Of a DNA stretch of 64,000 nt, positions 24,934 through 53,816 are shown piece by piece (the stretch's first letter is position 1; each line of letters begins with the position of its first letter). The DNA comes from Acidobacteriota bacterium (GTDB lineage Bacteria > Acidobacteriota > Thermoanaerobaculia > Multivoradales > J023). The notes under the pieces are model-generated. The model was not told the origin of the DNA, did not search any database, and saw only the letters and a program-made list of their open reading frames with translations. The stretch lies in contig JAJCXR010000057.1 in assembly GCA_029263315.1 (NCBI GenBank), positions 124,001-188,000 on the forward strand, read 5' to 3'. A program made the translations under genes and the position numbers.

Positions 24934-27900
24934 ATGCGGAAACCCGGAAAATCGAAAAGGCCGAGGTCAGGACGGAGGCGACGGGCCTGGGCAATGAGCC
25001 TCTTCCTGGTCCTTGCTGCGGCTGGGATCTCGGGTCCCGTGGCCGCCTTGGAGCCCGATGAAGCCTTGGAGCCCGAAGACGTTTTGGAGCCTAGCGGCGA
25101 GCTGCCGCCGAAGGGTTTACCCCAGCTCGATGAGCTGGAGCATCTGGGTTCCAATGATGGGTTGTCGCACGATACGGTTTGGTCGATATTCCAGGACTCG
25201 AAGGGGTTCATGTGGTTTCTCACCTCCGAGGGGGTGAACCGCTACGACGGCTATCGCTTCACAACCCTTCGCCACGAACGGGGCAATGCGGATTCGTTGG
25301 TGAGGAATCAGGCGACGGCGATGGCCGAGGACGCCGCCGGTAACCTCTGGATCAGCACCTCGGTTGGGCTCGATCGCTACGACAGAGCACAACGCCGATT
25401 TACCCATTACCGATCCGACTCGACGCAGCCCGGCAGCCTCCCAGATCCTCAGGTCTACAGCTTAGGAGTGGACGGCAGGGACCGCCTCTGGGTTGGGACT
25501 GCCGCGGGACTGGCCCGTTTCGTTCCGGCCAGCGACACCTTTGAGGTGGTGGAGATCTTCGCTCAGGAGGAGCAACCCGCCGCGCCCCATGAGGTGTCGG
25601 CGATCCTGGCCTCGCCGGACGGCAGTCTTTGGCTAGGGGTCAATGCCTCCCTCTGTCGAGGGCGAGACGATGCTTCCGGGATGGCCTTCGAATGTTGGAG
25701 TCTCGATCCTACGGAGGGTTCCGGGGAGACCTCGGGCGCTGTCCGTGAGCTGGCCGTCGACGGCCGGGGCCGCGTTTGGGCCACCACCTGGGGAGCCGGG
25801 CTCCGGCAACTCGATCCACAACGTGGCGAAGTACGCCATTTTCGTCACCGGGCGAATGGCGAGGATGGCCTGGGGAGCGACGATACCACCGCCGTCGTGG
25901 TGGACAAACACGGTGCCGTTTGGGTGGGTACCGACTCGTCGGGTCTCTTCCGGTGGGACCCGGAAGGCCAGGCTTTCGATCGCTACCAGCGGGATCCCCA
26001 TCGCCTCGCTGGCTTGAGCGACAACGGCGTGCTGAGTCTCTTCCTCGACCGTCAAGGTCTGCTATGGATCGGAAGTTACCTCGGCGTCGATCGATACGAC
26101 CCGAGTCGTGAGGCCTTTCGTACCCTTCGCCAGCATCCCGAAGACCTGACCCAGTTGGTGGGGCTTGGCGTCTGGGCCCTGCACCAAGCCCCCGACGGCG
26201 AGCTCTGGGTCGGAACCTACACCGAGGGCCTAGAGCGCTTTTCGGCCGAGGGGCGACGGTTGCGACACTTTAGCCCGGAGGATGGCGCTGGGTCGCTGCG
26301 CAACGGGGTTGTCAGTGCCATCGTGGAGGATGGCGTAGGTGGGCTCTGGGTCGGCACGTGGGGTGGCCTGCACCGCTTTGACCGCCGACGGGAGACGTTC
26401 TCGGTGGCCTACCATCGAGCCGACGATGACAGCAGCTTGGCCAGTGATCGGGTGTATCACCTGCTCCGAGATTCCCGCGGCGAGCTGTGGATCTCTTTGC
26501 TCAGCGGCGGCGTCGATCGCCTGCTCTCGGAGCCCCAGGAGCGGCGCCTGCAATTCAAGCACCACCGGCCTGAGGAAGACAATCCCGATTCCCTGGCCGG
26601 CTCCTCCGTCTATCAGACCTTGGAGGATCACCGGGGGGATCTGTGGTTCGCCACCAATCAGGGACTAGACCGTTTGCCCGCCGACCAGAGGGCCGACGAA
26701 ACCTTGGTCTTCGAGCATTATGTTTTTGACCCCGCGGACCCCCGGAGCTTGAGCGGAAACGAGGTGGGCTCTCTCTTCGAAGATTCTGAGAATCGTCTTT
26801 GGGTAGGCACCGACGGTCACGGGGTCAGCGTCCTCGACGCAGAACGGCACAGTTTTCGGCGCTTCGATCGCAGGGATGGTTTGCCCAGTGACATGATCAA
26901 CGGCATTCTCGGCGACGACATGGGAGGCATTTGGCTGTCGACCGGCAATGGCTTGGCCCGCTTCGATATGCAGAGCGAGACCTTTCGCACCTTTGGTGTC
27001 GAAGATGGTTTGCAGGGCCGGGTCTACTCCGTGGGTTCGATGCTGCGCTCGTCCGCCGGCGAGCTCTTCTTCGGAGGGACGGCGGGTTTAGACCGCTTTT
27101 GGCCCTCGGAAATCCGAATCGACACCACCGAGGCTCAACCCGTGCTCACCGACTTCTTGTTGTTCAATCGCTCGGCGCCCCTGCGCCGTTTGGATCCTTC
27201 GTCCCCCCTGACCGCCGATATCGGACAGCTGAGCCAGGTGACCCTCGACCATCGGCAATATGTCTTCGGCTTCGAGCTCGCGGCCCTACATTTCGCCAGC
27301 CCGCGCAACAACCTCTTCGAGTACCAGCTCGAGGGCTTTGATCCCGATTGGATTCGCACCGGTCCGGACAAACGGTTTGCCCAATACTCCAATTTGCCCT
27401 CCGGGGAGTATGTCTTTCGCCTCAGGTCGGCCAACGAAGATGGCCTCTGGAGCTCCGCGGTCAACCAGCTGAGGGTGGTCATCCTTCCCGCTCCCTGGCG
27501 CACTTGGTGGGCTTATACGTTCTACATGCTGGCACTTCTGGGTGGGCTGGCCTTCTACATTCGGGGACATCGTCGCAAATTGGCCTACGAGCAGTCGGTG
27601 AACGATCGCTTGCGGGAAGTGAATCGGATGAAAGACGAGTTCCTGGCCAATACCTCCCATGAGCTGCGGACCCCGCTCTACGGCATCATCGGTATTACCG
27701 AGTCGTTGATCGATGGAGTGACCGGTCGATTGCCCGTAGGCACTCGACAGAATCTATCGCTGATCGCTGGCAGTGCCAGGCGCTTGAGCGCCTTGGTCAA
27801 TGACATTCTCGATTTCTCCAAGCTCTCCGCCCGTCACTTGGAGTTGCAGAGGTCCGCCGTCGATCTGCGCAGCCTTTGCGATGTGGTGCTGACCCTTTCG

Positions 27901-29085
27901 GCGCCTCTAATCGGCAGCAAGGAGCTCAAGCTGCGCAACCTGATCGATCCGTCGTTGCCCGCCGCCGACGCCGACGAGGCCCGATTGCAGCAGATTCTGC
28001 TCAACTTGCTGGGCAACGCCATCAAATTTACCGAGTCCGGGAGGGTCGAGGTTTCAGCCCGCGTCGAAGGGGAACGCATCGAGGTTTCGGTCACCGACAC
28101 GGGCATCGGTGTGCCCGAGGAACAGAGGGAATCGATTTTTGGGGCTTTCGAGCAGGGGGATGCATCGACGGAGCGCCAATTCGGTGGCACCGGGTTGGGA
28201 TTGGCGGTGACCCGCAAGTTGGTCAATTTGCATGGTGGCACCATCGGTGTGCGTGCCGCCGCCGGTCACCCAGGGGCCGAATTCTATTTCACCCTGCCCA
28301 TCCATCAAGGGGATGCTCCGGTGACCCCAGGGGTCGAAACGGGCGGCGCAGTGGGGTTGGAGGTGCCGGAAGTCACTTGGTCCTCGCCGCAGCCCGTCTC
28401 GCAGCTGGCGCTGCCGACGACGCCCTTGGAAACGGTTCCAGCGGTGGCATCGGCTCTCGAGTTGCCGCCGGGAGAGCTCAAGATCTTGATCGTCGACGAC
28501 GAACCGGTCAATCGTCAGGTTCTGCTCAACCACTTGGCTTTGGAGCAATTTGTCGTCGAGTCGGCGTCCAGTGGCGCCGAGGCCCTGCGACAGATCGAGG
28601 CAGGTTGGATCCCCGATCTGGTGCTGTTGGATGTGATGATGCCCAAGATGTCCGGTTACGAGGTGTGCCGGGCCTTGCGGCAGCGTTTTCGGTTGACCGA
28701 ATTACCGGTGATTTTTCTCACCGCTAAGAATCAACCGGAGGATCAAGTGACCGGTCTGGCACAAGGAGCCAATGACTACTTGACCAAACCGGTCACCCGG
28801 GCGGAGCTCCTGTCGCGGGTGCGCCTGCACCTGGAGCTGCTCTGGGTGCATCGCCATCTCGAGGAGGTGGTGCAGGAGCGCACGGCGCAAGTCAAGACCC
28901 TCGGCGGCTTGTTGCCGGTCTGTGGCCTATGCAAGAGCGTGCGCGACGACTCCGGCTACTGGAGTCAGCTCGAGGAATACCTGTGCCATCACTCCGAGGC
29001 ACAGGTGACCCACGGAATTTGCCCGAGCTGCCTCGAGCAGCACTATGGGACTCTGCTCGGCGCTGCGGAGAAGAATGCCGAGTGA
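24934..29085 (+). CDS. Propeller-type hybrid histidine kinase with receiver and cysteine-rich C-terminal domain
   Basis: 1383 residues from an ATG at 24934. A signal/anchor (about 15-38) precedes a periplasmic sensor of two-component-regulator propeller repeats (G-x-L-W-(I/V)-G-T, about 60-735) and a Y_Y_Y domain (about 760-850). A membrane segment lies near 855-875. HisKA follows with H909 in NTSHELRTP, then HATPase_c (NLLGNAIKF; GGTGLGLAV), then a receiver (ILIVDDEP; phosphoacceptor D1233 in VLLDVMMPKMSG). The last 60 residues carry VCGLCKSVRDDSGYW and GICPSCLEQHYG, a cysteine/histidine domain found at the end of some kinases and regulators. No DNA-binding output, so it must signal to another protein. 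BvgS/BT-type sensors of this kind often sense polysaccharide breakdown products. Confidence 0.93.
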   Translation: MRKPGKSKRPRSGRRRRAWAMSLFLVLAAAGISGPVAALEPDEALEPEDVLEPSGELPPKGLPQLDELEHLGSNDGLSHDTVWSIFQDSKGFMWFLTSEGVNRYDGYRFTTLRHERGNADSLVRNQATAMAEDAAGNLWISTSVGLDRYDRAQRRFTHYRSDSTQPGSLPDPQVYSLGVDGRDRLWVGTAAGLARFVPASDTFEVVEIFAQEEQPAAPHEVSAILASPDGSLWLGVNASLCRGRDDASGMAFECWSLDPTEGSGETSGAVRELAVDGRGRVWATTWGAGLRQLDPQRGEVRHFRHRANGEDGLGSDDTTAVVVDKHGAVWVGTDSSGLFRWDPEGQAFDRYQRDPHRLAGLSDNGVLSLFLDRQGLLWIGSYLGVDRYDPSREAFRTLRQHPEDLTQLVGLGVWALHQAPDGELWVGTYTEGLERFSAEGRRLRHFSPEDGAGSLRNGVVSAIVEDGVGGLWVGTWGGLHRFDRRRETFSVAYHRADDDSSLASDRVYHLLRDSRGELWISLLSGGVDRLLSEPQERRLQFKHHRPEEDNPDSLAGSSVYQTLEDHRGDLWFATNQGLDRLPADQRADETLVFEHYVFDPADPRSLSGNEVGSLFEDSENRLWVGTDGHGVSVLDAERHSFRRFDRRDGLPSDMINGILGDDMGGIWLSTGNGLARFDMQSETFRTFGVEDGLQGRVYSVGSMLRSSAGELFFGGTAGLDRFWPSEIRIDTTEAQPVLTDFLLFNRSAPLRRLDPSSPLTADIGQLSQVTLDHRQYVFGFELAALHFASPRNNLFEYQLEGFDPDWIRTGPDKRFAQYSNLPSGEYVFRLRSANEDGLWSSAVNQLRVVILPAPWRTWWAYTFYMLALLGGLAFYIRGHRRKLAYEQSVNDRLREVNRMKDEFLANTSHELRTPLYGIIGITESLIDGVTGRLPVGTRQNLSLIAGSARRLSALVNDILDFSKLSARHLELQRSAVDLRSLCDVVLTLSAPLIGSKELKLRNLIDPSLPAADADEARLQQILLNLLGNAIKFTESGRVEVSARVEGERIEVSVTDTGIGVPEEQRESIFGAFEQGDASTERQFGGTGLGLAVTRKLVNLHGGTIGVRAAAGHPGAEFYFTLPIHQGDAPVTPGVETGGAVGLEVPEVTWSSPQPVSQLALPTTPLETVPAVASALELPPGELKILIVDDEPVNRQVLLNHLALEQFVVESASSGAEALRQIEAGWIPDLVLLDVMMPKMSGYEVCRALRQRFRLTELPVIFLTAKNQPEDQVTGLAQGANDYLTKPVTRAELLSRVRLHLELLWVHRHLEEVVQERTAQVKTLGGLLPVCGLCKSVRDDSGYWSQLEEYLCHHSEAQVTHGICPSCLEQHYGTLLGAAEKNAE

Positions 29086-37313: not shown

Positions 37314-37594
37314 AGCTGTAGCTTTCCTCGGTAACGTTGTGACGTGATGCCAACCCCGACGGGCTCTTGAAGAGGCGGCATCCGGCTCAGGTCTCCGGTT
37401 CTCTAGCGTCCCAGTCTTCCGGCAGACTGACGGTGGAGCCTGGAGATGCAGGATCGGATGTGTCGAGAGTCGCATCTTATCGGATCGCGCTTCTGGGGTC
37501 ATGGCTCAGCCGCTTTCGCAGTATGCTTGGCGCTTCACGGCAAAGCACGGCGCTGAAGACAGAGATTGTTCGATTCGGATTTCTGGAGAACGGG

Positions 37595-38842
37595 ATGGGG
37601 TCGAGCGCCTCGCCACAACCACCGCAAGAGGATGTTCACGTGATCAGCACATTCCGCGGCCTCGAATGCTCGATCTGTGGCCTTGCCCACCCTATGGACG
37701 AAGTGCAGACCTTCTGCCGAGGGTGTGGACGGGCACTTCTGGCCCGCTACGATCTGCAGGCGGCTCGCAAGGGCTTCCAGCAAGGTCTCTATCGACGTCG
37801 TCGTAACGACATGTGGCGCTATTTGGAGGTCATGCCGGTGACCGATCCAGCGGCCATCGTCACCTTGGGGGAAGGTTGGACGCCCCTATTGCAAGTGCCG
37901 AGATTGCAAGGCCAGCTGGGGTTGGCCGGGCTCTGGGTCAAAGACGAAGGGGGGAATCCCACCGGCTCGTTCAAGGCCCGGGGCATCTCCGCGGCGATCA
38001 CTCGGGCCCGCCAACTGGGGATTGCGGAGATCGGCATACCCACCGCCGGCAATGCCGGTGCTGCCTCGGCCGCCTATGCCGCCCGCGCCGGCATGACGGC
38101 CCACGTGGCCATGCCGGCGGACGCACCTCGACCGATGATCGACGAGGTGCGGGCCTATGACGCCGACCTGACCCTGGTGGACGGCTTGATCAGCGATGCC
38201 GGCAAGTGGATTCGTCAGGGGGTGGCGGATCATGGTTGGTTCGACATGTCGACGATGAAAGAGCCTTTCCGCCTCGAAGGCAAGAAGACCATGGGCTACG
38301 AGCTCTGGGAGCAGCTCGACGGTCATTTGCCGGACGTCATCCTCTATCCCACCGGCGGCGGCACGGGTCTGATCGGTATGTGGAAGGCCTTCGAAGAGCT
38401 GGCGCAGATGGGGCTGCACGACGGGCCCCGGCCGCGTATGGTGGTGGTGCAGTCCACCGGCTGCGCTCCCATGGTGCGGGCCTTCGAGGCCGGTGCCGAA
38501 CGAGCCGAGCCTTGGCAAGGGGCCGCCAGCCTGGCGCCGGGGATTCGCGTTCCCGGGGCGTTCGCCGACGATTTGATCCTACGCGCCGTCAGACAGAGCG
38601 GCGGCGTGGCGGTGGCGGTGGAGGAGGAGGCGATCCTCGAAGCCACCTACCGTCTAGGGCGCCTGGAGGGCATCGACGCGGCGCCGGAAGGTGGGGCCAC
38701 CTTGGCGGCCTTGGACAAGCTCTTGGCTTCGGGATGGGTGCGACCCGACGAACGGGTCGTGCTGTTCAACACCGGAAGCGGCTTGAAGCATCCGGAGCTG
38801 CGCTCCACGAAACCTCTGCCCGAGCCGGTGACCGTTCCCTGA
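37595..38842 (+). CDS. thrC: Threonine synthase
   Basis: 415 residues from an ATG at 37595, with GGAG six bases upstream. An N-terminal zinc-ribbon-like segment (C25, C28, C41, C44) precedes the PLP fold-type II domain with K127 in NPTGSFKARG, GNAGAASAAYAARAG and the phosphate-binding GGGTGLIGMWKA. This fits the archaeal/plant-like ThrC class that keeps an N-terminal zinc ribbon. It should convert O-phosphohomoserine to threonine. No homoserine kinase or dehydrogenase is adjacent. The 281 bp upstream hold no gene I can see and should contain its promoter. Confidence 0.9.
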   Translation: MGSSASPQPPQEDVHVISTFRGLECSICGLAHPMDEVQTFCRGCGRALLARYDLQAARKGFQQGLYRRRRNDMWRYLEVMPVTDPAAIVTLGEGWTPLLQVPRLQGQLGLAGLWVKDEGGNPTGSFKARGISAAITRARQLGIAEIGIPTAGNAGAASAAYAARAGMTAHVAMPADAPRPMIDEVRAYDADLTLVDGLISDAGKWIRQGVADHGWFDMSTMKEPFRLEGKKTMGYELWEQLDGHLPDVILYPTGGGTGLIGMWKAFEELAQMGLHDGPRPRMVVVQSTGCAPMVRAFEAGAERAEPWQGAASLAPGIRVPGAFADDLILRAVRQSGGVAVAVEEEAILEATYRLGRLEGIDAAPEGGATLAALDKLLASGWVRPDERVVLFNTGSGLKHPELRSTKPLPEPVTVP

Positions 38843-38997: not shown

Positions 38998-41900
38998 ATG
39001 CGAATACTCCTCGCGTCACCCACCGACGTTGTCAACTATCGCGAAGCCGCCATTCGAGTCGCTGAACGGCTCAATCAGGAGAACCAGGCCAAGTTAGGGA
39101 CGGCTCAATTTCTCGAGGTCGTCGATTGGAATCGGCAGATCGCCGAGTTGCAAGGGCTGCCCGAAAGCGCCATTCTGGAAGAGATCTCGGTGCGCGAAGA
39201 CGACGTCTTCCTGGGCGTCGCCTGGTTGGCCTTCGACCGCCAAATCGGTGACGACAACAACGGCTATCACTACAGCACGGAGCGCAACTTCGAGCTCGCC
39301 TTCGCCTATTGGAAAGCCCAGCGTCCCGAGCACTGCTTTCTGTGCCGGTGTATGCGACTGCCGGAAAAGCTGACGGACATCAATGGCCGTGCCCTCGATC
39401 GCGTGCACCAGTTCTTCTCCCGTTTCAGTATCGACGGTGGCAATCCGGTAGCCTATTACGAGTTCGATTCCGCCACCGATCTCGAGGAGTATTTGGCGAC
39501 CCGCCTGGGGCGGCTGTTCCAGGGGCTGGGGGCGCCGCCTCGGCCCGGTACCGGCGGCGAGGCACCGACGGTGGTCGCCGGGCCCCAGGGCAGGCCGTCT
39601 TCTCCGCCGTCCTCGCCGCCACCGTCTTCTCCTCCACCGTCCTCGCCGCCGGTCGCCGGGCCCCAGGGCACGCCGTCCCCGTCCCCGACGCCGCAATCTC
39701 CGGCAGCTGGCGTGACCGTAGATCGAGACACCAAAGCCCCCGGTGCTCGAGCCGTCCCGACGCCGGTGGCCGAAACAGTGCCCCCGTCGGCCTCCCCAGC
39801 GTCGGTCTCTGCGCCCCCCACGGGTCCTGAGTTCGAGCGCAAGATGCAGCCGGGAAAGGCCTACGAGGTGTCGTTCCTGAGTATCGAGATCGTGCTCGAA
39901 GAGCCCTTGCAGCAGGCGGCCAAGTCGCGGCCGGCGGAGGTCGCCGCCCTCTTCAAGTCGTTTCGCGAGCTGGTTTCCGGAATTGCCGCCAACTACGGCG
40001 GTGAGGTGTTCCGCTGGCAGGACAACGGCGGCATGATGATCTTTTGGAGCAGCCGTTCCTTCGACCACGCCATCATGACCGGCCTCAAAGTGCTGCACAA
40101 TCTGCCGGTGTTCAATTTGGACCCGGAGCAGAATCCTTTTGCCCTCAGTATCAAAACGCGGGCTGCGGCCCACGATGCGGTGATCATCTTCCAGCTGCCG
40201 TCGAGGGATATCACTTCCAGCGATATCGATTTTGTGATCAACCTGCAACAGCAGCACACCGACGCCACCGAGCTGAGCATTACGCGGCGTCTGTTGGAAC
40301 GCATCGACGAGCGCCTGAAACCGCATTTTCGTTTCAAGTCTCGGTACGACAACGAGCCGGTCTACGCCTGCCGCTTGCCATCGACGGACCAGGGACCGAG
40401 CTCCGAGAGCCTGCGCGACTTCACCGATCGATTGAGCCAGCAGACGACGGTGGTACGGGCCGTCCTGGCCACCCCATCGGCCCAATTGGACGAGGGGGCC
40501 TTGGATGGCATGAGCACCGCCGTCGACGAGGTCTACACCATCCTCAACAAGTTCTGCACCTCGCACAGCAATATCGACAATACGTGGGCCGCCGAGCTGT
40601 TCCAGGAGCTCGGCGATGCCGCCACCACCTTGACGCAAGAAGAAGCGGCGATCTGGCAAGACTTGCGCAAGAGCTACGTCGGCGGCACCTACTCGGCGTC
40701 CAAAGCCCGCAAGCTCGAAGCCATCGTCAAGGCGGCCTCGCGGCGTCGGGCTCGGCCGGTGGTCATCCTCGACAAGCTGATCCAGCGCTGCACCCTGCTG
40801 GCCGGTGGGGAAGAAGAGGTCCAACCTTCAACCGAGGCCGCCGATGGTGATTTGATCAAGAAGCTGGAAGCTTTCATCAAGGCCGATGTGCTCGATGTCG
40901 AGACCGCTCTCACCGAGCTGCTGCTGCACCACAAACCCTTGATGCTCGAGTTTTTGCAACGTCCGCGGCCCGACGACGATCTGCATCGGCGCCTGCTCGA
41001 CAAGCTATGGGAGACCGCGGACTTGACCCTGCTGGACGATCTCTTCTCGATCCGTGGGCGACAGCGGGCGGGCGAGGAGAAGGTCTTCGAAGTGCTCGAG
41101 AGCAAGGTCAAGGATCGCCGCTTCAGCGTCATTCGCAGCTTGCTGAACAGCGACGAGCAACCCTCCCAAGAGCGGCTGCAGAAGTATTTTGCTCAGGCCG
41201 GCCTGAGCCCTGAAGCGGCGGATCTACAGGTGGTTTGGCGCTCCCTGGTGCTCGGCCACCGCAACGCCGAGGTGCGCAAGTACTCGGCCTTTCGACTGTC
41301 CCCCCATTCCATGTGGCAGGCCATCTCCCACCCCAGCATTCCAATCCTCAGCATCCTGGCGATCGGCGAGCGGATCAACCGGGCCGAAGGGGACGACGCC
41401 AAGAAAATTTTCTTCGATTGCACCCGGTCTCGCTTGGAAACTGCCATCGACGGCGCCCGCAGCCATGAGGAGTTTTCGATCATCAGCAAGCTGGTGCTGC
41501 TGCTGATCGATTTTCCCTTCTTGGTGGAAACCGGCTACTTCGAGCGTTTCGACGATCTGCTGCAAAAACTCCTGGAGCAATGCCAGAAGGTGGGCTTTCA
41601 GGTGGAGTACTTCGAAAACCTGCGGCGTACCCTGGAAGAAGCGCGACGCAGCAGCGGCGAGACCGGCCCCAGCAAGCCACCGGCGGGTATCCAGAAGCTT
41701 CCCCTCACCATCCAACGCCGTTTGGCGGGGGAGGCGCGCTACGTCTATTGGTTCGTCAGCCATCCGGATCCCCGCATCGCCGGCGAAACGCTGCGCCACG
41801 TAGGACTGATGAACATCGAGCGGGTGCTGCGTCTGCGGGAGGTCAACTCGGCGGTGATGCAAGCCATCCTGCGCAAGCCAGAGCTTTTCACCCGCAGCCA

Positions 41901-42096
41901 AGCTTTGATCGCCGCCCTGAACCATCCCAAATGTACCCAAGACTTCGCCAATCGCCACCTGCCCCATCTAGGCCGTTCCCGGCAAGGGTCGGTGGCTTTG
42001 CAGAAAGTGGTCAACAATCCGTCGGCCAATCCCGTAGTTCGCGCTGCCGCAAAACGTGCCCTCGTGGGTTCGCCGCCGCGGCGGGCCGCTCGCTAA
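38998..42096 (+). CDS. DUF4062-like / cyclase-homology-like / HEAT-like multidomain protein
   Basis: 1032 residues from an ATG at 38998. Residues 1-175 resemble DUF4062 (MRILLASPTDVVNYREAA, then EISVREDDVFLGVAW), a TIR-related domain common in STAND and conflict proteins. A Pro/Ser-rich linker (about 179-278) is flanked by VAGPQG duplications. Residues about 281-460 look like a class III nucleotide-cyclase fold (FKSFRELVSGIAANYGGEVF, then QDNGGMMIFW), but the first metal Asp is replaced (SFLSIEIV), so activity is doubtful. The rest is helical, with HEAT-like repeats from about 750 (HPSIPILSILAIGERI; HPDPRIAGETLRHVG). No membrane segment. Function unknown; the architecture suggests a signalling or defence sensor. 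Confidence 0.7.
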   Translation: MRILLASPTDVVNYREAAIRVAERLNQENQAKLGTAQFLEVVDWNRQIAELQGLPESAILEEISVREDDVFLGVAWLAFDRQIGDDNNGYHYSTERNFELAFAYWKAQRPEHCFLCRCMRLPEKLTDINGRALDRVHQFFSRFSIDGGNPVAYYEFDSATDLEEYLATRLGRLFQGLGAPPRPGTGGEAPTVVAGPQGRPSSPPSSPPPSSPPPSSPPVAGPQGTPSPSPTPQSPAAGVTVDRDTKAPGARAVPTPVAETVPPSASPASVSAPPTGPEFERKMQPGKAYEVSFLSIEIVLEEPLQQAAKSRPAEVAALFKSFRELVSGIAANYGGEVFRWQDNGGMMIFWSSRSFDHAIMTGLKVLHNLPVFNLDPEQNPFALSIKTRAAAHDAVIIFQLPSRDITSSDIDFVINLQQQHTDATELSITRRLLERIDERLKPHFRFKSRYDNEPVYACRLPSTDQGPSSESLRDFTDRLSQQTTVVRAVLATPSAQLDEGALDGMSTAVDEVYTILNKFCTSHSNIDNTWAAELFQELGDAATTLTQEEAAIWQDLRKSYVGGTYSASKARKLEAIVKAASRRRARPVVILDKLIQRCTLLAGGEEEVQPSTEAADGDLIKKLEAFIKADVLDVETALTELLLHHKPLMLEFLQRPRPDDDLHRRLLDKLWETADLTLLDDLFSIRGRQRAGEEKVFEVLESKVKDRRFSVIRSLLNSDEQPSQERLQKYFAQAGLSPEAADLQVVWRSLVLGHRNAEVRKYSAFRLSPHSMWQAISHPSIPILSILAIGERINRAEGDDAKKIFFDCTRSRLETAIDGARSHEEFSIISKLVLLLIDFPFLVETGYFERFDDLLQKLLEQCQKVGFQVEYFENLRRTLEEARRSSGETGPSKPPAGIQKLPLTIQRRLAGEARYVYWFVSHPDPRIAGETLRHVGLMNIERVLRLREVNSAVMQAILRKPELFTRSQALIAALNHPKCTQDFANRHLPHLGRSRQGSVALQKVVNNPSANPVVRAAAKRALVGSPPRRAAR

Positions 42097-45426: not shown

Positions 45427-46812
45427 TCAAGCGAGCTTTCGCAGATCTTCCAGCAAGGGCTCGATAACCGCCTCTTCTTCGACGACGCGACCCATCTCTT
45501 GCATGGCCGTCGCCAGGTTGGGGTCCCATTCGGCGGCGACGGGTTTGCCGCTCAGCCGGGGTAGGTCGTCGGAATTGGCGAGTTGACGGGCGAGTTGGCG
45601 ATAGTCGTCGGCGGTGAAGCGCCATGGGGTGAACGGCAGGCTTCGCCAGAGGGTATTGCCGATGTTGAGGCCGCCCCAATCGAAATCGCCGTGGTAGCGC
45701 AGCTCGGCGCCGTGTTGCCGCAGGCGGGTGAGCAGAAGATGGGCGGCGGTATTGGGCTGGCCGGCGAGGCACACCATGGGCGGGCAGCGGTTGCCCAGGT
45801 CATCGACGGCCATGGCGACGACGGCGGGGTTCTCGCAGACCCAGACGATGCCGCCGGGCAGGGACCCGATGGCCGGCGAGGCGGCCAATTGCCGCAAGGT
45901 CAAGCGCAAGGGTTCGCCGACCTCGGCGTGTTGCCGCAGGGTCCTGGCCAGGAGGGCATCGCCCCCAGGACGCAAGCCGGCAACCAGCACGTCACAGCTG
46001 AGATCGTCGCAGATGACGCCGTGCCGGGCCCACAGGGCGCGGCGGCGGGCGGCGGTATTGGGCATCGGCCAGCCTTCGCGGTGGGCCAATGCCCGGAGGA
46101 CCAAGGCGGCGACACGGTGCTGAGGATCGAGGGCGTGGCTGTCGCCGAGGGTTTGGCTGGCCAGCACCGCCAGGCGGACGGTGGCGGTGCCGGGCTGGTC
46201 ATCGCTGGGCTGATCGTCGCTGGGCTGGTCGTCGCTGGCTGCCGTCGTGGGAATGGCCGAGAGCACTTGTAAAGCACGCTCCAGCAGCGCATCCGGTGAT
46301 TCGTCGCGGCGCTTGGCCAAACGACGGTAGAGGCCGGTGGTTGCTAGGTCATCGAGCCACTCCCGGCTCGCCGGTAGCTTGGGGAGCTGGGGGTGCCGTC
46401 GAGCGCGTCGCCAGAAGGCTTGCCAGAAGTCTTGCTCAGCTTGTCGCTCCGCCGGCCGATCCCGCAAGCGACCGCCCCGTGCCCGCAGCGCTGCTTCGAG
46501 GCCGATGGCGAAACGGCTGGCACGCAGGGTGGCGTCGAGGCGCTTCAAGTCGAGGACGAAGGGACGCTCGGTCGATGGCAGGCGCCGCAGCCCGAGGAGG
46601 TCGGCAATGGCTTGGCGTTCGTCGTTGTCGAGCTCGTCGAGGCGCAACCGCCCGCGGACGCCCCCCAGGGTTTCGATTCTCTGGCGGGCGGCGCCCCACA
46701 GCCGTTGCAGTCCCGGTTTGGCCAGTAGCTGGGCCAGAGCGGGGGCGATGGCGCCGTCCCGCGCTGCCGTTGTCCCCCGTTCCGAGTCCGACGGTCGGCG
46801 CTCAGGGGACAT
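45427..46812 (-). CDS. jetD: Wadjet nuclease subunit JetD
   Basis: 461 residues from an ATG at 46812 with a strong GGAGGAAG Shine-Dalgarno; an ATG at 46836 is less likely. It belongs to the TIGR02679 (DUF3323/DUF2399) family. The Toprim-like nuclease centre is visible as WVCENP (E327) and YHGDFDWGG (D376, D378). In Wadjet, JetD cuts circular DNA held by the JetABC SMC motor. A variable linker (about residues 192-206) holds three SDDQP repeats from a 15-bp tandem repeat. The start overlaps jetC by 11 bp. Last gene of the operon. Confidence 0.9.
   Translation of the reverse strand: MSPERRPSDSERGTTAARDGAIAPALAQLLAKPGLQRLWGAARQRIETLGGVRGRLRLDELDNDERQAIADLLGLRRLPSTERPFVLDLKRLDATLRASRFAIGLEAALRARGGRLRDRPAERQAEQDFWQAFWRRARRHPQLPKLPASREWLDDLATTGLYRRLAKRRDESPDALLERALQVLSAIPTTAASDDQPSDDQPSDDQPGTATVRLAVLASQTLGDSHALDPQHRVAALVLRALAHREGWPMPNTAARRRALWARHGVICDDLSCDVLVAGLRPGGDALLARTLRQHAEVGEPLRLTLRQLAASPAIGSLPGGIVWVCENPAVVAMAVDDLGNRCPPMVCLAGQPNTAAHLLLTRLRQHGAELRYHGDFDWGGLNIGNTLWRSLPFTPWRFTADDYRQLARQLANSDDLPRLSGKPVAAEWDPNLATAMQEMGRVVEEEAVIEPLLEDLRKLA
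46195..46238. repeat. 15-bp tandem repeat inside jetD
   Basis: Three units of CTGGTCGTCGCTGGG type start at 46195, 46210 and 46225. They are translated on the minus strand as SDDQP repeats. Confidence 0.85.
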
Positions 46813-49800
46813 GGTCTTCCTCCAACCCTCGACCATCCCACAGGAAGCGGATCGCTTCGACGCCCCCTAACCGCGGGTCGCGATATAGCTGGTAGGTGGC
46901 GACACCGGGGAGCTCTTGATAACAGCCCCACTCGTCGTAGCTGGTCATCATGAAGTCGAGGTCGAACTGCACCAGCAGCCCCATGCAGCGGCCGCGCATG
47001 CCGGCGTCGATGCCGGCGAAGGCTTCGTCCAACATGATGAGATGGGGCGCTTCCGGCCGGGCGGAGTCGTAGTGGGCCTTGGCGGCGGCGAACAGGGGCA
47101 GATGCAGGGCCACCGCTTTTTCGCCGCCGGAGCTGGCGGCGTGGTCCCGCTGGCTGAGCTCGTTCCAGGACTCTCCGGGCATCCGACGCAGGATGCTGAA
47201 GCGGTGCCACCGACGGTAATCCAGGGCCTCCAGCAGCTGTTCCCGCCACGGCACGACGGAGTGCTCCTGGCGGGCTGCGTCGATGCGCTGACGGAAGAAG
47301 TCCTCCAAGGCCTGCCGATCGGTGTCGCCCAGCATGTCCGGATCCTGTCGTAACCAACCGATGATTTGACGGATTTGCCCGTCCTGGCTGCTATCGGGCT
47401 TCCAGGCCAATCGCAAGGTCATGCCGGAGGCGGTGCGGCAGGCGGCCAACAGCTCGTTGATGCGGTCGACCAGAGCTGCCGCTTGGCGTAATCGACCGCG
47501 CAGATGGTCCCCCACCTCGCCGAGCAGGAAGCCGCGCAGCAACTGGCGTTCGTCCTCGGCCAGCAGCCTCTGGCGTTCGGCCGTTTCGCGCCACAGCAGG
47601 GTCAACAGACCGTGACCGTCATAGCTGTGTTGGCGGTGTGCGACCCGCAGGACTTGCAAGTCCCCCTCCGGGTCCAGGCTCGGGAGAAAGTCTCCACCGA
47701 GCTCGGCGGGTAGCTCTTGGAAGCGCTGGTTCATGCGTCGGCTGCGGCGATTCATCGCTTCGTCGGAGAGGTCGAGATCGCCCAATTGGCGCTGTAGCTG
47801 GCGGGCCACCGTCAAAGCGTGGCTCAAGGTCCAGGCCCGGTCGTCCGCTTCCGTAGATTCGGGTGCGGCATCGTCGTCGGTTGCGGCGAGGGGTGACTCA
47901 GCGTCGATCGGAGCGGCGGGATCGAGCAGGGCGAGGACGCCACGGATCTCCAGCCGTTGCAGGTCCGCCACGGCCGCTTGACGTTGCTTTTGCAAGGACT
48001 CCAAGTCCTCCCCGAGGAAGCGATGGCGCTCCTTCAGCACGGCGTGCTGCATCTGCCGTTGATGGCGGGATTCCCGCAGCTTCTCCTGCAGGGCTGTGCC
48101 GTCCTGTAAGCTCTGCTGCACCGCAGCATAGCGCTCGACGATGTCCTGGGCTGCAACGCCGACGGTGGCGCGCAGGGTCGCCAACTCGGCGTCGGCACGG
48201 CGCGCCAGGCTTTGGCTGGCGGTGGCCCGCTGCTCGGCATTCTGGCGTCGCTCGTCGGCCAGTTGCCAGCGCTGCGACGCTTTGGTCAAGGCGTCTTGGC
48301 TGGATCGCAGTCGCAGGTGGTGACGCAGCAAGGCGTCCCAGGCCAGCCCGTAGGTGCGCAGGTGGTCCTCGTAAGCGTCCAGGCGATCGATCCAAGGGCT
48401 CAGTCCGGTGGCCTTGCCGCGCTCCACCAAGTCCCGCTGCGCCGAGTCTTGCTCTCGGCGGGCGGCAGCGACGGCCCCCTCCGCTTGGCCGAGCTCTTCG
48501 CGCCGTCGGGCCAAATCGTCAGCACAGGCCGCCGCCCGATGACGCAGGGCGTCCAAGGTGTCGCTGGAGGGCAGCTCCCGGGCCTGCCGCTCGAGGCCCG
48601 CCAGTCGGTCGCTATGGCCTTGGATCGCCGTCTCGAGCTCGAGCCGTTGGCGTTCCAACCGGGTCAGTTGGTCGTCGAGCCGCGCCACGTGTCGACGGCG
48701 GTTGGCCCGTCGGGCTGCTGCGCCGACGAACTCGGGCTCGCTTTTGAGAAAGCGGCCGCGGAGCGGTCCGAGGGCATAGAGGCCGCGGACATCGACGATG
48801 GGCGCCGCATCGCTGGGTTCGGCGTTGCCTTCCGGGGCGGCGCCGTCATGGAGGGCGATGGAGCGCAGCAGGGCTTCGACCACCGGCTTGGTAACTTCGC
48901 TCGAGTCGTCCGTTTCGACCACCAGGAGATCGGCCAGGGTGGCTCGTCCGGCGGCCAAGGGGCGAGGAACGAGGGCCGCATCCTGGGTCGTGGCGTCCAG
49001 AACCTGACCGTCGGGCAGGACCCAGGCATCGAGCAGGCCCGCCCCCTGAAGCGCTGCTTCGAGGCCGGCCCGCTGTGCGGTGTCCAAGGAGTCATCAAAA
49101 TCCACCAGGCGATAGAAGGGGGCTCCGGGCCGATGGAGGCGGGGGCTCGGGCGGCCGGGGGACGGGTCGGGCTCCACGTCCTCGGCATCGAGCAGCCGTC
49201 GCCGCGCTTCCTCGATCTCCTGCTGCTCCGCGAGACGGGTTTGGAGCTCGCCGGTGAGGCGGGTTCGCTCGGTGATGGAGATCTCACGGCGGGGCAGGAG
49301 CAGGCCCTGAAGGGCCTCTGAGAGAGCCCCCCGTTCGCCGTCCAAGGCGGCGTGGAGAAGATCCCGCTCCGACATTTCCAGCTCGAAGTGATGGGCGCCA
49401 TCGGCCCACCCTTCGACGGCCTCGGTCAGCCTTTGGCGCTCCGAGTCGACGGCTGCTGCGGCCAATTGGTGGCGCTCGGCGGCCGACCCCACCTGTTCAT
49501 CGGCCCGCTGGCGGCGATCGTCCTGCCGTTGGAAGTTTTCCTTTGCCAGCTCGAGGGCGGTGGTCAGTCGACGCAACCCGTCCACCGCGCGCTGGCCCTG
49601 GGCGATGGCGGCGCTGACCGCCCCTTGCACGCTCTGTCGATGCGCCGTCGCATCCTCTTCCAGCTTCTCCTCAGCTGCCCCGTGGACCGCTTCGAGGCCA
49701 CTGCGCAGGGCCGCCTCGGAGGCCCGGTGTTGCAGCTCCGAGAGGGCGTCCTGTTGCCGCTGGAGTGCGGCCTCGGTCTCCTCGAGCTCCGATCGGAGAC

Positions 49801-50986
49801 TGGCCGCTTCGTCTGCGAAGGCGGCGAGGTCGTCGGTGTCTTGGGTGGCCCGTTGTTCGAGACGGCGGACTTCCGTCTCCCGCTGCTGCAGGGTCTCGGC
49901 GGCGCGCATCGCTTCCGATTGCTCGAGGGCCCGGGCTTCTCCCCGCCAGCGGTCGAGATCCGCCACCGCCGTCATGAGCTGGGTCGCCAGGCGGTTCAGG
50001 TCTTCGTCGGCCTGCAGGATCTCTTGCTCCACCTCCCGTACTTCGGCCGCCTTCCTGTGGTAGCGGCTCTCGCTCCCCGTCATCTCACCCACCCGCCGGC
50101 TGGTGATGCCACGGCAGTAGTCACGGTAGACCTCGAGGAACCCTTCGACGGCTCCGGCGGCCCGTTGCAGGCGGTCGATCTCCCGGACTTCGAGATCCAG
50201 TCTCTCGTAGGTCTTCGACAACCGACCGATCAAGTCTTCATCGATGGGGGGCAAGCTCTCCCCCAGCAGGGAGGACAGGCGCAGGGGATCGAGCTTTTCG
50301 GAAAGTTGTGGACGGCGCAGTTGGAGGAGCAAATGAACGAGGGCGCCGTAGCGTTCGTCGCCGAGCCCGAAAAGGTTTTGGTCGACCTGTTGGCGGTACT
50401 CGGAGGCGCGTTGGAAGACCCTGCCGCCTGCCGAGTCTTCCAACTCACGACGTAACTGTTCTCGGCTCAGGGGAGCACGACCAGGGGTCAGCAGGCTGAA
50501 ATCCCCGGGGCGCCGTCGGCTGATGAAATACCAAGATTTGACGTCGTCGTGGCGCTTGGAGGCTTGCAGACCACAGCCCAGGGTAATGTATTCGGCGGTG
50601 GTTTCCGAAGGAATCGGGGTGTCGACGAGGCGGCCCAGCTCGAGCCAGACATAGCCCAAGCGCTGGTCGTGGACGCCGTCCTCGAGCAGGTTCCAGCGCA
50701 TACTGCGGCCGCTGCCCTGAAACGGGTCGAGGCGGCGGGGCGACAAATTGGCATCGAGCAGAAAGGGCAAGAGGATTTCCAGGGCCTTGGACTTGCCGGT
50801 GCCGTTTTCGCCCCGCAAGATGAGTCGTCCCTGGTGGAAGTGAAATTCCTGCTCGTCGTACTGCCAAATATTGAGGATGCCGGCCCGTAGGGGCTGAAAG
50901 CGGCTGCCGCTGGGTTGTGGCAAGGGCCGTGACGGCGACCGCGCCCCGTCGGCGGCCAGCAGCGACATTTGTGAGTCTTGGCTCAA
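46802..50986 (-). CDS. jetC: Wadjet SMC-like ATPase JetC
   Basis: 1394 residues if started at the TTG at 50986, which overlaps the jetB stop; an ATG at 50968 would remove six residues. It is of the TIGR02680 family. Walker A is GENGTGKS (59-66), the signature is SSGGEKA and Walker B is IMLDEAFAGID (D1320, E1321). Long coiled coils (about 290-570, 750-900, 900-1100) and a central hinge-like region (about 600-740) are typical of condensin-like proteins. With JetA and JetB it forms the DNA-loop-extruding motor that recognises small circular DNA. Confidence 0.92.
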   Translation of the reverse strand: MSQDSQMSLLAADGARSPSRPLPQPSGSRFQPLRAGILNIWQYDEQEFHFHQGRLILRGENGTGKSKALEILLPFLLDANLSPRRLDPFQGSGRSMRWNLLEDGVHDQRLGYVWLELGRLVDTPIPSETTAEYITLGCGLQASKRHDDVKSWYFISRRRPGDFSLLTPGRAPLSREQLRRELEDSAGGRVFQRASEYRQQVDQNLFGLGDERYGALVHLLLQLRRPQLSEKLDPLRLSSLLGESLPPIDEDLIGRLSKTYERLDLEVREIDRLQRAAGAVEGFLEVYRDYCRGITSRRVGEMTGSESRYHRKAAEVREVEQEILQADEDLNRLATQLMTAVADLDRWRGEARALEQSEAMRAAETLQQRETEVRRLEQRATQDTDDLAAFADEAASLRSELEETEAALQRQQDALSELQHRASEAALRSGLEAVHGAAEEKLEEDATAHRQSVQGAVSAAIAQGQRAVDGLRRLTTALELAKENFQRQDDRRQRADEQVGSAAERHQLAAAAVDSERQRLTEAVEGWADGAHHFELEMSERDLLHAALDGERGALSEALQGLLLPRREISITERTRLTGELQTRLAEQQEIEEARRRLLDAEDVEPDPSPGRPSPRLHRPGAPFYRLVDFDDSLDTAQRAGLEAALQGAGLLDAWVLPDGQVLDATTQDAALVPRPLAAGRATLADLLVVETDDSSEVTKPVVEALLRSIALHDGAAPEGNAEPSDAAPIVDVRGLYALGPLRGRFLKSEPEFVGAAARRANRRRHVARLDDQLTRLERQRLELETAIQGHSDRLAGLERQARELPSSDTLDALRHRAAACADDLARRREELGQAEGAVAAARREQDSAQRDLVERGKATGLSPWIDRLDAYEDHLRTYGLAWDALLRHHLRLRSSQDALTKASQRWQLADERRQNAEQRATASQSLARRADAELATLRATVGVAAQDIVERYAAVQQSLQDGTALQEKLRESRHQRQMQHAVLKERHRFLGEDLESLQKQRQAAVADLQRLEIRGVLALLDPAAPIDAESPLAATDDDAAPESTEADDRAWTLSHALTVARQLQRQLGDLDLSDEAMNRRSRRMNQRFQELPAELGGDFLPSLDPEGDLQVLRVAHRQHSYDGHGLLTLLWRETAERQRLLAEDERQLLRGFLLGEVGDHLRGRLRQAAALVDRINELLAACRTASGMTLRLAWKPDSSQDGQIRQIIGWLRQDPDMLGDTDRQALEDFFRQRIDAARQEHSVVPWREQLLEALDYRRWHRFSILRRMPGESWNELSQRDHAASSGGEKAVALHLPLFAAAKAHYDSARPEAPHLIMLDEAFAGIDAGMRGRCMGLLVQFDLDFMMTSYDEWGCYQELPGVATYQLYRDPRLGGVEAIRFLWDGRGLEEDHVP

Positions 50987-52203
50987 AGGTTCGCCTCGGT
51001 GCTGGGCTCGACGTAACGAAAGCGGAAGAGGGCCGGCAAGGGCTCGACCCCCTCCGAGTGACGCCGCACCAGTCCGAGATCGGCGAGCACCGAAAGGGCG
51101 TCGTCGAGCAAGGTGGCGCCGCTCGCATCGTCGCGGTAGGCGGCGCGCCAGCTGTGGGTTTGCAGCAACCTGACGGCGGCCTGCAGGAGGTCGGCCCGGG
51201 CCACGATGAGGCGCTCAGCGGGGGCTGTCGCCGAGGGCTTGCCACAGCGTCGGGCCAAGGCGTCGGCGATCAACAGGGCGGCGTGGTCGACATGCCGCTG
51301 GCCGGGGAAGCGGAGGTCGCTACAGCGGCCGCTGTCGTCGATGGTCACCACCCCTTCCCGTCGCACCTCGACGGTGAGCGGCGTCCAGGTCTCGATCTGG
51401 TCGATGAGCCGTGGGCGGACGGCATTGAAGTAGCCGCGCTCGTCCTCATCCAGGCTGTCGAAGTAGAGCACCGGCTGTTCCACCATGTGTCGCATCAAGC
51501 GATGGCGCAGGCGGTCGTTTTTGCCATCGGGGGTAGGGGCGTAGGACTCTTCCGCCAAATCCCGTGGATGCTCGGCCAGGGAGGGGGGCATCGGTGAGGC
51601 GAGCATTTGGGTCAAGCGTCGGCTGTCGATGTCGTAGAGGGCGTCGCCCTTGCCTTGCCGCACGTAGCCGCCTTCGTTGCCGTCGGTGCGCGCCAGAATG
51701 CCGTAATCCACCAATAGCAGGAGGGCGTCGACGAAACGGCGGCGCTCCCCCGGTTGCTCGAGGTCGAGGGGCGTCACGCCCTCAGTGTCGGTGGCCAGGT
51801 CCCGCACCGCCACCGCCAGCTCTGAGAGGATAGTTTGGTCTGTCTCGACTTTTTCCAGGGCCGCCAGCACCAAGCAGAGGATGGCGTAGCGTCGGCGATC
51901 GAAGGGCCGCTGGGCGGCGCCCCAAGACGCCCCCCTCGGGCGGTCTTCCCAACGGCCTTCGGCGGACGGTGGTGACCGCTTGTACAGGCGGGCGAATTCG
52001 TGGTCCACCACCAAGCGGTATCCGAGGTGATGGCGAAACCACTCCCTGAGGGCGTCCGCATGGCGACGCACCAGGGCGAAGGCGGCGACCTCGGGGCCGT
52101 CGTCGGTGACGAAGGGCGAGGCCAGTAGCAGGCCGACGGCTTGCCGCCGTTCGTCGCGCCGCTGCAACTCGCGGTCCCCCAGGTTTTCGAAGATGTCCCC
52201 CAT
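50983..52203 (-). CDS. jetB: Wadjet subunit JetB
   Basis: 406 residues from an ATG at 52203 that shares one base with the jetA stop (TGATG). It belongs to the TIGR02678 (DUF2398) family, a winged-helix, KITE/MukE-like partner of the SMC protein: ERRQAVGLLLASPFVT at the N-terminus and DYGILARTDGNEGGYV in the winged-helix region. No catalytic motif is expected. Its 3' end overlaps jetC by four bases. Confidence 0.88.
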   Translation of the reverse strand: MGDIFENLGDRELQRRDERRQAVGLLLASPFVTDDGPEVAAFALVRRHADALREWFRHHLGYRLVVDHEFARLYKRSPPSAEGRWEDRPRGASWGAAQRPFDRRRYAILCLVLAALEKVETDQTILSELAVAVRDLATDTEGVTPLDLEQPGERRRFVDALLLLVDYGILARTDGNEGGYVRQGKGDALYDIDSRRLTQMLASPMPPSLAEHPRDLAEESYAPTPDGKNDRLRHRLMRHMVEQPVLYFDSLDEDERGYFNAVRPRLIDQIETWTPLTVEVRREGVVTIDDSGRCSDLRFPGQRHVDHAALLIADALARRCGKPSATAPAERLIVARADLLQAAVRLLQTHSWRAAYRDDASGATLLDDALSVLADLGLVRRHSEGVEPLPALFRFRYVEPSTEANL

Positions 52204-53816
52204 CAAGCGGCCCCAGCGCCGGATCGGCGTTGCCCCAGACCCCGCTCGACGGTCAGGATGAAGTCGGGAAGGGTCAGACGACCCCACTGGCTGCGCACTT
52301 CCACCCAAGGGCCTTCAAGGACCTCCGAATCGCCCGTCGCGACGTCCGCCGTCTGTAACACCAGGCGGAGCTGGCCATCGCGACTGCGAGCTTGTCGTCG
52401 ACCGTCGCTGTCGGCCGGCGAAGCCAGCAGGCGTCCGAGCAGGGACAGCAGAAGTTGCAGCTCGGCGGCGTCCAGGGTGGGAAGCTCGGCCAGCCGTAGG
52501 GGACCGCGGTCGATGAATCGTGCCAAGGCTTCGCCGTCGCGGCGTCGTTCCGTTTCGTGGCGTTGTCGCAACTGGCGTTTGGCGGCTCGATAGTCGCTGA
52601 TGCGCGGCGGTCGTCCCGGAGCACTGGGGGCGTTGGGCAGACGCACGGTGGGGGAGAGCTCCACCGGCGGCGTCTGGCGCCAAGAGCTCTTGGGTTGCAC
52701 GCGATCGATGTCCTCGGGCAAGGTCGACAGGTGACGGGCCGGAAAGAGCCCGAAGGCGTCTTGGAACAAGCGGTGCGGATCGTCGACCAGGGTCGGATCT
52801 TCAAACCAAGTGGCCAGGCGCAGCAGGTCGGCGGTGCGATTGGCGCGACGGAACCGCTTCTCGTGCAGGCGTGACAATACCCGCAGGATGCGTTCGACGG
52901 CGTGCAGGGCCGCTTCCCGCAAGAGCTTGAGGGTGGCCGGCTGGGTTGCGTCGCCGATGAACCAGGTGACGATGCCTTGCCATTGCCGGATCAGTTGGGG
53001 CGTGGAGTCCCGTTGGCCGTCGAGGGTTGGCGTCGGGTCCGCCTGGGCTGCAAGTCGCATCATCTCTTCCACGCCGGTGGTGGCGAGGTTTTCCAAGGCA
53101 CCGACAATGCGCGGCGAGATGCCTTGCAACTGACGCACGAAGTCGTCGAGGTAGGTGATCACCGCTTCTTTGTAGGCGATGAAGGCGTCGAGGCGCACCT
53201 CGCTGGCGTCGATGGCCTCGTGCAGGCGTGCCAAGAAGATACCGGCGTTTTCGGTCAGTGCCTTGAATTGCTCGTTGACGTTGAACAAACCTTCGTAGAG
53301 GCGGTCGGGGCGCGGACCGTCGTCGGTTCGTGCCATCTCTTCCACCAACGATCCCAGGTTGCGCAGAATGGCGCCGAGCATGACGGTTTGCAGAGCACCG
53401 CTCTCCGCCAGCGCCGCCACCACGGCACCCACGGCCCGTTCCGCCGCCTCCCCGGCGGTGGTGATTTGGTAGAGAAAATGGCGGCGCCGGAAGTCCTCCA
53501 AGGTGGCGACTCGCCCGGTGTCATGGCTACGCCGCAGGTTGCCCCAGTCGCAGAGCTGATTCAGGGCGCGCTCGAGGGTGTCGTCGTCCACTTCCAGGCC
53601 GACCCCGCGCCGGGCCAGCCCGGCCGCCACTTGGTCGGGTCGGAAATGGATTTGATAGCGGGTTTTACCGTCCGCCAACAGACGCATGATGGCCCGGTAG
53701 AGGGGCGCTAGAGATTCAACGGTGTAGTGAAAGACCCGCAGCCGGGAGAGATCGTCCTCGATGGCTAGGTTCCCATCGGGCAAAGAATTCTCTTCTGTGG
53801 TGGATTCGGTGCTCAC
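52203..53816 (-). CDS. jetA: Wadjet subunit JetA
   Basis: 537 residues from a GTG at 53816 with a weak Shine-Dalgarno. It is of the TIGR02677 (DUF2397) family, the MukF/kleisin-like subunit: LRVFHYTVESLAPLYRAIMR at the N-terminus, winged helix near LCDWGNLRRSHDTGRV, a helical middle, and a C-terminal kleisin-like domain. First gene of the four-gene Wadjet operon. The upstream 174 bp are filled with GTGCCAGGCAC repeats, so the promoter must lie within or beside them. Confidence 0.88.
   Translation of the reverse strand: MSTESTTEENSLPDGNLAIEDDLSRLRVFHYTVESLAPLYRAIMRLLADGKTRYQIHFRPDQVAAGLARRGVGLEVDDDTLERALNQLCDWGNLRRSHDTGRVATLEDFRRRHFLYQITTAGEAAERAVGAVVAALAESGALQTVMLGAILRNLGSLVEEMARTDDGPRPDRLYEGLFNVNEQFKALTENAGIFLARLHEAIDASEVRLDAFIAYKEAVITYLDDFVRQLQGISPRIVGALENLATTGVEEMMRLAAQADPTPTLDGQRDSTPQLIRQWQGIVTWFIGDATQPATLKLLREAALHAVERILRVLSRLHEKRFRRANRTADLLRLATWFEDPTLVDDPHRLFQDAFGLFPARHLSTLPEDIDRVQPKSSWRQTPPVELSPTVRLPNAPSAPGRPPRISDYRAAKRQLRQRHETERRRDGEALARFIDRGPLRLAELPTLDAAELQLLLSLLGRLLASPADSDGRRQARSRDGQLRLVLQTADVATGDSEVLEGPWVEVRSQWGRLTLPDFILTVERGLGQRRSGAGAA

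What the first reader, a model, noticed from the sequence alone, without database searches (positions are those of the whole stretch)
38998..42096. DUF4062 / degenerate cyclase / HEAT-like protein, possible new sensor or defence protein
Seen: an unusual three-part architecture with a Pro-rich hinge and loss of the first catalytic Asp in the cyclase-like part. Known: DUF4062 is TIR-related and common in STAND/conflict proteins. Inference: the pseudo-cyclase may bind a cyclic nucleotide or nucleotide ligand and control a TIR-like effector. A Wadjet locus lies 3 kb away.
Basis: partly seen in the sequence, partly recalled or inferred. Interest (0 to 1): 0.66.

Follow-up and report, generated by a model that had tools for sequence, protein, structure and literature searches.

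The report
Conserved double pseudoenzyme scaffold in Acidobacteriota
This gene encodes a large protein built from an immune-type NAD-cutting domain and a cyclase domain that both seem to have lost their catalytic residues, joined to a helical scaffold, and it is kept beside a sulfur amino-acid enzyme gene in most known members of one bacterial family, so it looks like an inherited signalling or regulatory protein and not a phage-defence gene.

Summary
In detail: 38998-42096 (+) encodes a 1032-aa protein with a DUF4062 (TIR-like) domain (aa 1-175), a Pro-rich linker, a class III cyclase-like domain (aa 285-460) and a 560-aa all-helical C-terminus. The defence-effector reading is not supported. 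Orthologues (47-56% identity) occur in 6 of 7 genomes of the same family (the window's own included) and in none of the other 65 genomes searched in the order. A cystathionine beta-synthase-type gene follows immediately in 5 of those 6. Wadjet II adjoins the block only in this genome; no clear defence system lies beside the orthologues checked.

The Glu invariant in DUF4062 NADases is Asn here (N97) and N/N/E/D/A in orthologues. Both metal-binding Asp of the cyclase are lost. Yet the DUF4062 domain is under the same purifying selection as the rest (dN/dS about 0.04). Likeliest: a regulatory scaffold of two pseudoenzymes, possibly binding a nucleotide and controlling its operon partner. The C-terminal module also occurs on Ser/Thr kinases and a SIR2 protein. 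DUF4062 as TIR-like NADase is published (Swarozyc, PMC13174449); this protein fails the catalytic-Glu test. New variant of a known kind; moderate interest.

The parts
37631..38842 (+). Threonine synthase (longest ORF starts at 37367); upstream neighbour, also upstream in L002 and L003
   Evidence: NF006050 E=9.5e-166; 63% identical to L002/L003 neighbour
38998..42096 (+). Target protein, 1032 aa: DUF4062 - Pro-rich linker - pseudo-cyclase - helical solenoid
   Evidence: orthologues
38998..39522 (+). DUF4062 (TIR-like) domain, aa 1-175
   Evidence: PDC-S60 E=1.3e-4; hhalign 98.6%, 8e-16; alpha/beta model, pLDDT about 80-90 in most of the domain
39286..39288 (+). Codon of N97, at the position of the catalytic Glu of DUF4062 NADases
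   Evidence: alignment with 18 DUF4062 domains, Glu in 17
39532..39843 (+). Pro/Ser-rich linker, aa 179-282, much longer than in orthologues, predicted disordered
   Evidence: pLDDT < 50
39844..40383 (+). Class III cyclase-like domain, aa 283-462, both metal Asp lost (E297, and column near N343)
   Evidence: Foldseek E=4e-9 to Cya2, CyaC, Ma1120; profile matches to adenylyl cyclases and PycC
40408..42093 (+). All-helical C-terminal module, aa 471-1032; distal part shared with Ser/Thr kinases and a SIR2 protein
   Evidence: AF2 pLDDT 80; HMM matches in L051, L061, L062
42135..43115 (+). Cystathionine beta-synthase-type PLP enzyme without regulatory CBS domains, 38 bp downstream; conserved neighbour
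   Evidence: TIGR01137 E=6.6e-144, bits slightly under cut-off; conserved in L003, L054, L048, L049
43160..45322 (+). Multihaem cytochrome c + TPR protein; same neighbour in L003 (start of it also in L054)
   Evidence: Pfam; 55% identity

Best explanation
A chromosomal, vertically inherited regulatory scaffold. Its TIR-like (DUF4062) domain and class III cyclase-like domain are both pseudoenzymes kept for their fold, for binding a nucleotide or for assembly. They are tethered to a long alpha-helical solenoid that docks partners. The most likely role is intracellular signalling or regulation connected with the sulfur amino-acid (cystathionine beta-synthase) operon, not phage defence. Shown here: architecture, loss of catalytic residues, conservation, synteny, purifying selection. 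Inferred: absence of activity, ligand binding, the regulatory role and the partner.
For: Catalytic Glu replaced: window N97, L003/L002 N, L048 D, L050 A, only L049 E, against Glu in 17 of 18 DUF4062 of the phylum (the exception a truncated hit) and in the genome's own canonical DUF4062 protein (SITKKEYRAA). Both cyclase metal Asp non-conserved. DUF4062 dN/dS 0.044, equal to the cyclase (0.041) and C-terminal parts (0.042-0.044). Orthologues in 6 of 7 family genomes, none full-length in 65 others of the order. CBS-type gene adjacent in 5 of 6, 38 and 43 bp gaps in window and L003. No clear defence genes beside orthologues. C-terminal module also on Ser/Thr kinases.
Against: One orthologue (L049) keeps the catalytic Glu, and E95 two residues upstream is invariant in all orthologues, so residual activity cannot be excluded. 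The same C-terminal module is fused to a SIR2 domain resembling ThsA/Dsr2, a defence-type partner. The DUF4062 domain diverges faster than the rest between genera (36-39% against 57-62% identity). Synteny with CBS is missing in G200. Regulation of the neighbouring enzyme is guilt by association only. Only seven genomes of the family are held.
Confidence: 0.5

Rival explanations
1. An abortive-infection effector of the Swarozyc type: the helical C-terminus senses a phage component, releases the DUF4062 domain, and NAD+ is hydrolysed.
For: DUF4062 proteins are TIR-like NADases in defence (PMC13174449); PDC-S60 match; L049 keeps the catalytic Glu; same C-terminal module on a SIR2 protein; Wadjet 3.3 kb away.
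Against: Catalytic Glu absent in the window protein and in 4 of its 5 relatives; family-core gene with housekeeping neighbours; no clear defence system beside orthologues.
Confidence: 0.15
2. A receptor in which the cyclase-like domain binds a nucleotide and controls assembly of the TIR-like domain: a one-protein analogue of Pycsar (cyclase + TIR receptor), now working without catalysis.
For: Cyclase fold confirmed; PycC profile matches (E=4e-3 window, 4.7e-5 in L003); TIR-like partner in the same chain; strong conservation of non-catalytic cyclase residues (R388, H392, D393, D375, N379).
Against: PycC is itself a class III cyclase, so the match need not mean Pycsar kinship; no second gene; metal sites lost; ligand binding untested.
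Confidence: 0.2
3. A NADase still active through another Glu (E95 or E99), with a moved active site.
For: E95 invariant in all orthologues; E99 also in L049 and L048.
Against: The family Glu column is fixed two residues away from each; E99 is Gly in L003 and L002; the Glu at the E95 position varies freely in other DUF4062.
Confidence: 0.12

Closest known systems
DUF4062 TIR-like NADases / Swarozyc (KpSwz) (PMC13174449)
   Same: Homologous N-terminal alpha/beta domain, followed by auxiliary domains
   Different: Catalytic Glu is Asn; auxiliary part is pseudo-cyclase plus helical solenoid instead of an HTH/winged portal-binding domain; family-core gene instead of patchy defence-island gene
PADLOC candidate PDC-S60
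   Same: N-terminal domain of about 170 aa
   Different: The match covers only about 160 of 906 profile positions; the rest is unrelated at this sensitivity
Class III nucleotidyl cyclases (CyaC, Cya2, Ma1120, PycC)
   Same: Fold and strand order
   Different: Both metal-binding Asp lost; no sign of catalysis
Pycsar (PycC + PycTIR)
   Same: Combination of a cyclase fold and a TIR-like fold
   Different: One chain, both predicted inactive, no effector gene beside it
SIR2-helical protein L051 and kinase-helical proteins L061, L062
   Same: Distal helical C-terminal module (about 250-390 aligned positions)
   Different: N-terminal SIR2 or Ser/Thr kinase domain in place of DUF4062-cyclase

Membership tests
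DUF4062 domain family | Profile-level homology over the domain | tested here: met
   hhalign 98.6%, E 8e-16, aa 1-174; PDC-S60. Pfam PF13271 itself does not reach threshold
DUF4062 TIR-like NADases | Catalytic Glu in SxTxxE(F/Y/V)xxA | tested here: not met
   N97; orthologues N, N, E, D, A
DUF4062 TIR-like NADases | TIR-like fold | tested here: inconclusive
   AF2 gives an alternating beta-alpha domain; the 50 Foldseek rows shown were all cyclases, so a TIR match was not seen
Swarozyc defence system | HTH/winged portal-binding auxiliary domain | tested here: not met
   C-terminus is pseudo-cyclase plus helical solenoid
Swarozyc defence system | NAD+ depletion and phage protection | not testable with these tools
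   needs bench work
Anti-phage defence island gene | Patchy distribution beside other defence genes | tested here: not met
   6 of 7 family genomes, conserved CBS-type neighbour, no clear defence hits at orthologues apart from generic kinase, TPR, methyltransferase, radical-SAM and transporter matches
Class III nucleotidyl cyclase | Cyclase fold | tested here: met
   Foldseek E 4e-9, TM-score by target up to 0.80
Class III nucleotidyl cyclase | Two metal-binding Asp | tested here: not met
   E297 and column near N343; E/A and N/K/P/G in orthologues
Pycsar | Active pyrimidine cyclase plus separate TIR or TM receptor gene | tested here: not met
   Cyclase residues lost; neighbours are threonine synthase and CBS-type enzyme

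The most novel reading that the evidence does not exclude
A former TIR-like NADase/cyclase immune receptor that one bacterial family turned into a non-catalytic nucleotide sensor controlling sulfur amino-acid metabolism, supplying in trans the regulation that the CBS-type enzyme in its operon lacks.
Probability: 0.12. Interest if true: 0.7.

Novelty: new variant of a known kind. Interest (0 to 1): 0.42.

Why it matters
DUF4062 was only just shown to be a family of TIR-like NADases used in phage defence and in the vault particle. This is a lineage in which the domain has lost its catalytic Glu (to Asn, Asp or Ala) yet is held by purifying selection as part of a family-core gene. If confirmed, it shows an immune-type domain domesticated into a pseudoenzyme with a housekeeping role, and warns against calling every DUF4062 gene near a defence system a defence gene.

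Tried and rejected
Full-protein scans of genome contigs, viral contigs and plasmids found no relatives; the N-terminal domain alone did. Several genome-search requests failed. Direct PDB sequence search with the whole protein gave only a chance match. hhalign of the pseudo-cyclase against three cyclases of the same genome was not significant; the fold match carries that claim. The C-terminal fold search was unspecific. Rejected: Wadjet accessory gene (Wadjet absent at the orthologous loci examined); decaying pseudogene (dN/dS about 0.04); active cyclase (both Asp lost).

Full report
Observation. The ORF at 38998-42096 (+) is a real gene of 1032 codons. Pfam and NCBIfam give nothing of weight, but PADLOC matches PDC-S60 at aa 1-170 and PycC at aa 311-365. 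PDC-S60 recurs in the same place in all four full-length orthologues (best 1.5e-13), and PycC in L003 (4.7e-5). The Wadjet II operon (JetA2-B2-C2-D2) at 45427-53816 is also confirmed.

Relatives. A scan with the N-terminal domain found two Acidobacteriota MAG loci, L002 (partial) and L003 (967 aa, 56% identical over the whole length). Whole-genome searches found orthologues in 6 of the 7 held genomes of the window's family, the window's own included (in one genome the gene is split over two contigs; the genome without it is 81% complete), and full-length ones in none of the other 65 genomes of the order. In a sample of 396 genomes of the phylum, outside the family only the distal C-terminal module was found, in two Ser/Thr kinases; the order search added one SIR2_2 protein.

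Neighbourhood. Threonine synthase lies upstream in the window, L002 and L003. A cystathionine beta-synthase-type enzyme lies directly downstream in the window, L003, L054, L048 and L049 but not in L050 (names). Downstream of it, a cytochrome c/TPR gene is shared with L003, and its start with L054. Wadjet follows this block only in the window genome; in L003 a molybdenum-hydroxylase-type gene cluster follows. PADLOC scans of 20 genes around L003, L048, L049 and L050 found no clear defence system, only generic kinase, TPR, methyltransferase, radical-SAM and transporter matches. This is the pattern of a vertically inherited gene.

DUF4062 domain. Profile comparison with 18 DUF4062 domains of the phylum gives 98.6% probability, E 8e-16 over aa 1-174. 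A preprint reports that DUF4062 is a family of TIR-like NADases with a catalytic Glu (E97 in KpSwz), acting in a phage-defence system called Swarozyc and in human TEP1 (PMC13174449). In our alignment the fixed Glu is the one in SxTxxE(F/Y/V)xxA, present in 17 of 18 members, the exception being a truncated hit. The window protein has Asn there (N97); orthologues L003, L002, L049, L048 and L050 have N, N, E, D and A. The genome's own canonical DUF4062 protein keeps the Glu (SITKKEYRAA). An invariant Glu remains at E95, so some activity cannot be excluded.

Cyclase-like domain. AlphaFold on six orthologues gives a confident class III cyclase topology at 288-459, and Foldseek's best PDB matches are cyclases, E 4e-9, TM-score by target up to 0.80. 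Sequence profiles point the same way but weakly. The first metal Asp is Glu or Ala, and the second lies in a non-conserved column. Other residues are strictly conserved, so the domain is constrained for something other than canonical catalysis.

C-terminus. Aa 471-1032 is all-helical (pLDDT 80), resembling HEAT/ARM-type solenoids only loosely. Its distal part (aa 621-1020) is among the most conserved between genera (57-64%). The shared use of that part by kinases and by a SIR2 protein with ThsA/Dsr2-like matches marks it as a reusable signalling or sensing module.

Selection. Between L003 and L002/L054, dN/dS is about 0.04 in the DUF4062, cyclase and helical parts alike and 0.12 in the linker (synonymous sites are near saturation, so the values are rough). 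The domain without its catalytic Glu is not decaying.

Interpretation. The best-supported reading is a non-catalytic scaffold or sensor with two pseudoenzyme domains, inherited in this family and probably co-transcribed with a CBS-type enzyme. A defence role like Swarozyc is possible for ancestors or for L049, but is not favoured for the window protein. A nucleotide-receptor role is open and testable.

Noticed in passing
window 45427-53816 (-): Apparently complete Wadjet type II operon JetA2-JetB2-JetC2-JetD2, placed next to the conserved block only in this genome.
   Followed up: partly
L051:2694-5168 (+): SIR2_2 domain with ThsA/Dsr2-like matches fused to the same helical C-terminal module, in another family of the order: a candidate defence NADase with this sensor module.
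   Followed up: partly
L061:5445-7967 (+) and L062:3650-6349 (-): Ser/Thr kinases carrying the same helical C-terminal module.
   Followed up: partly
L063:5841-6833 (+) (G000 contig C47): Canonical DUF4062 protein of the same genome with the catalytic Glu intact (SITKKEYRAA), between a large ORF and ABC-transporter genes.
   Followed up: no
window 24934-29085 (+): 1383-aa ORF with weak PADLOC matches (SduA, PDC-M43B); not identified.
   Followed up: no
L066 (G000 contig C24): Another cyclase-like domain in this genome with the first Asp lost (CGIQNF), in an 859-aa frame.
   Followed up: no
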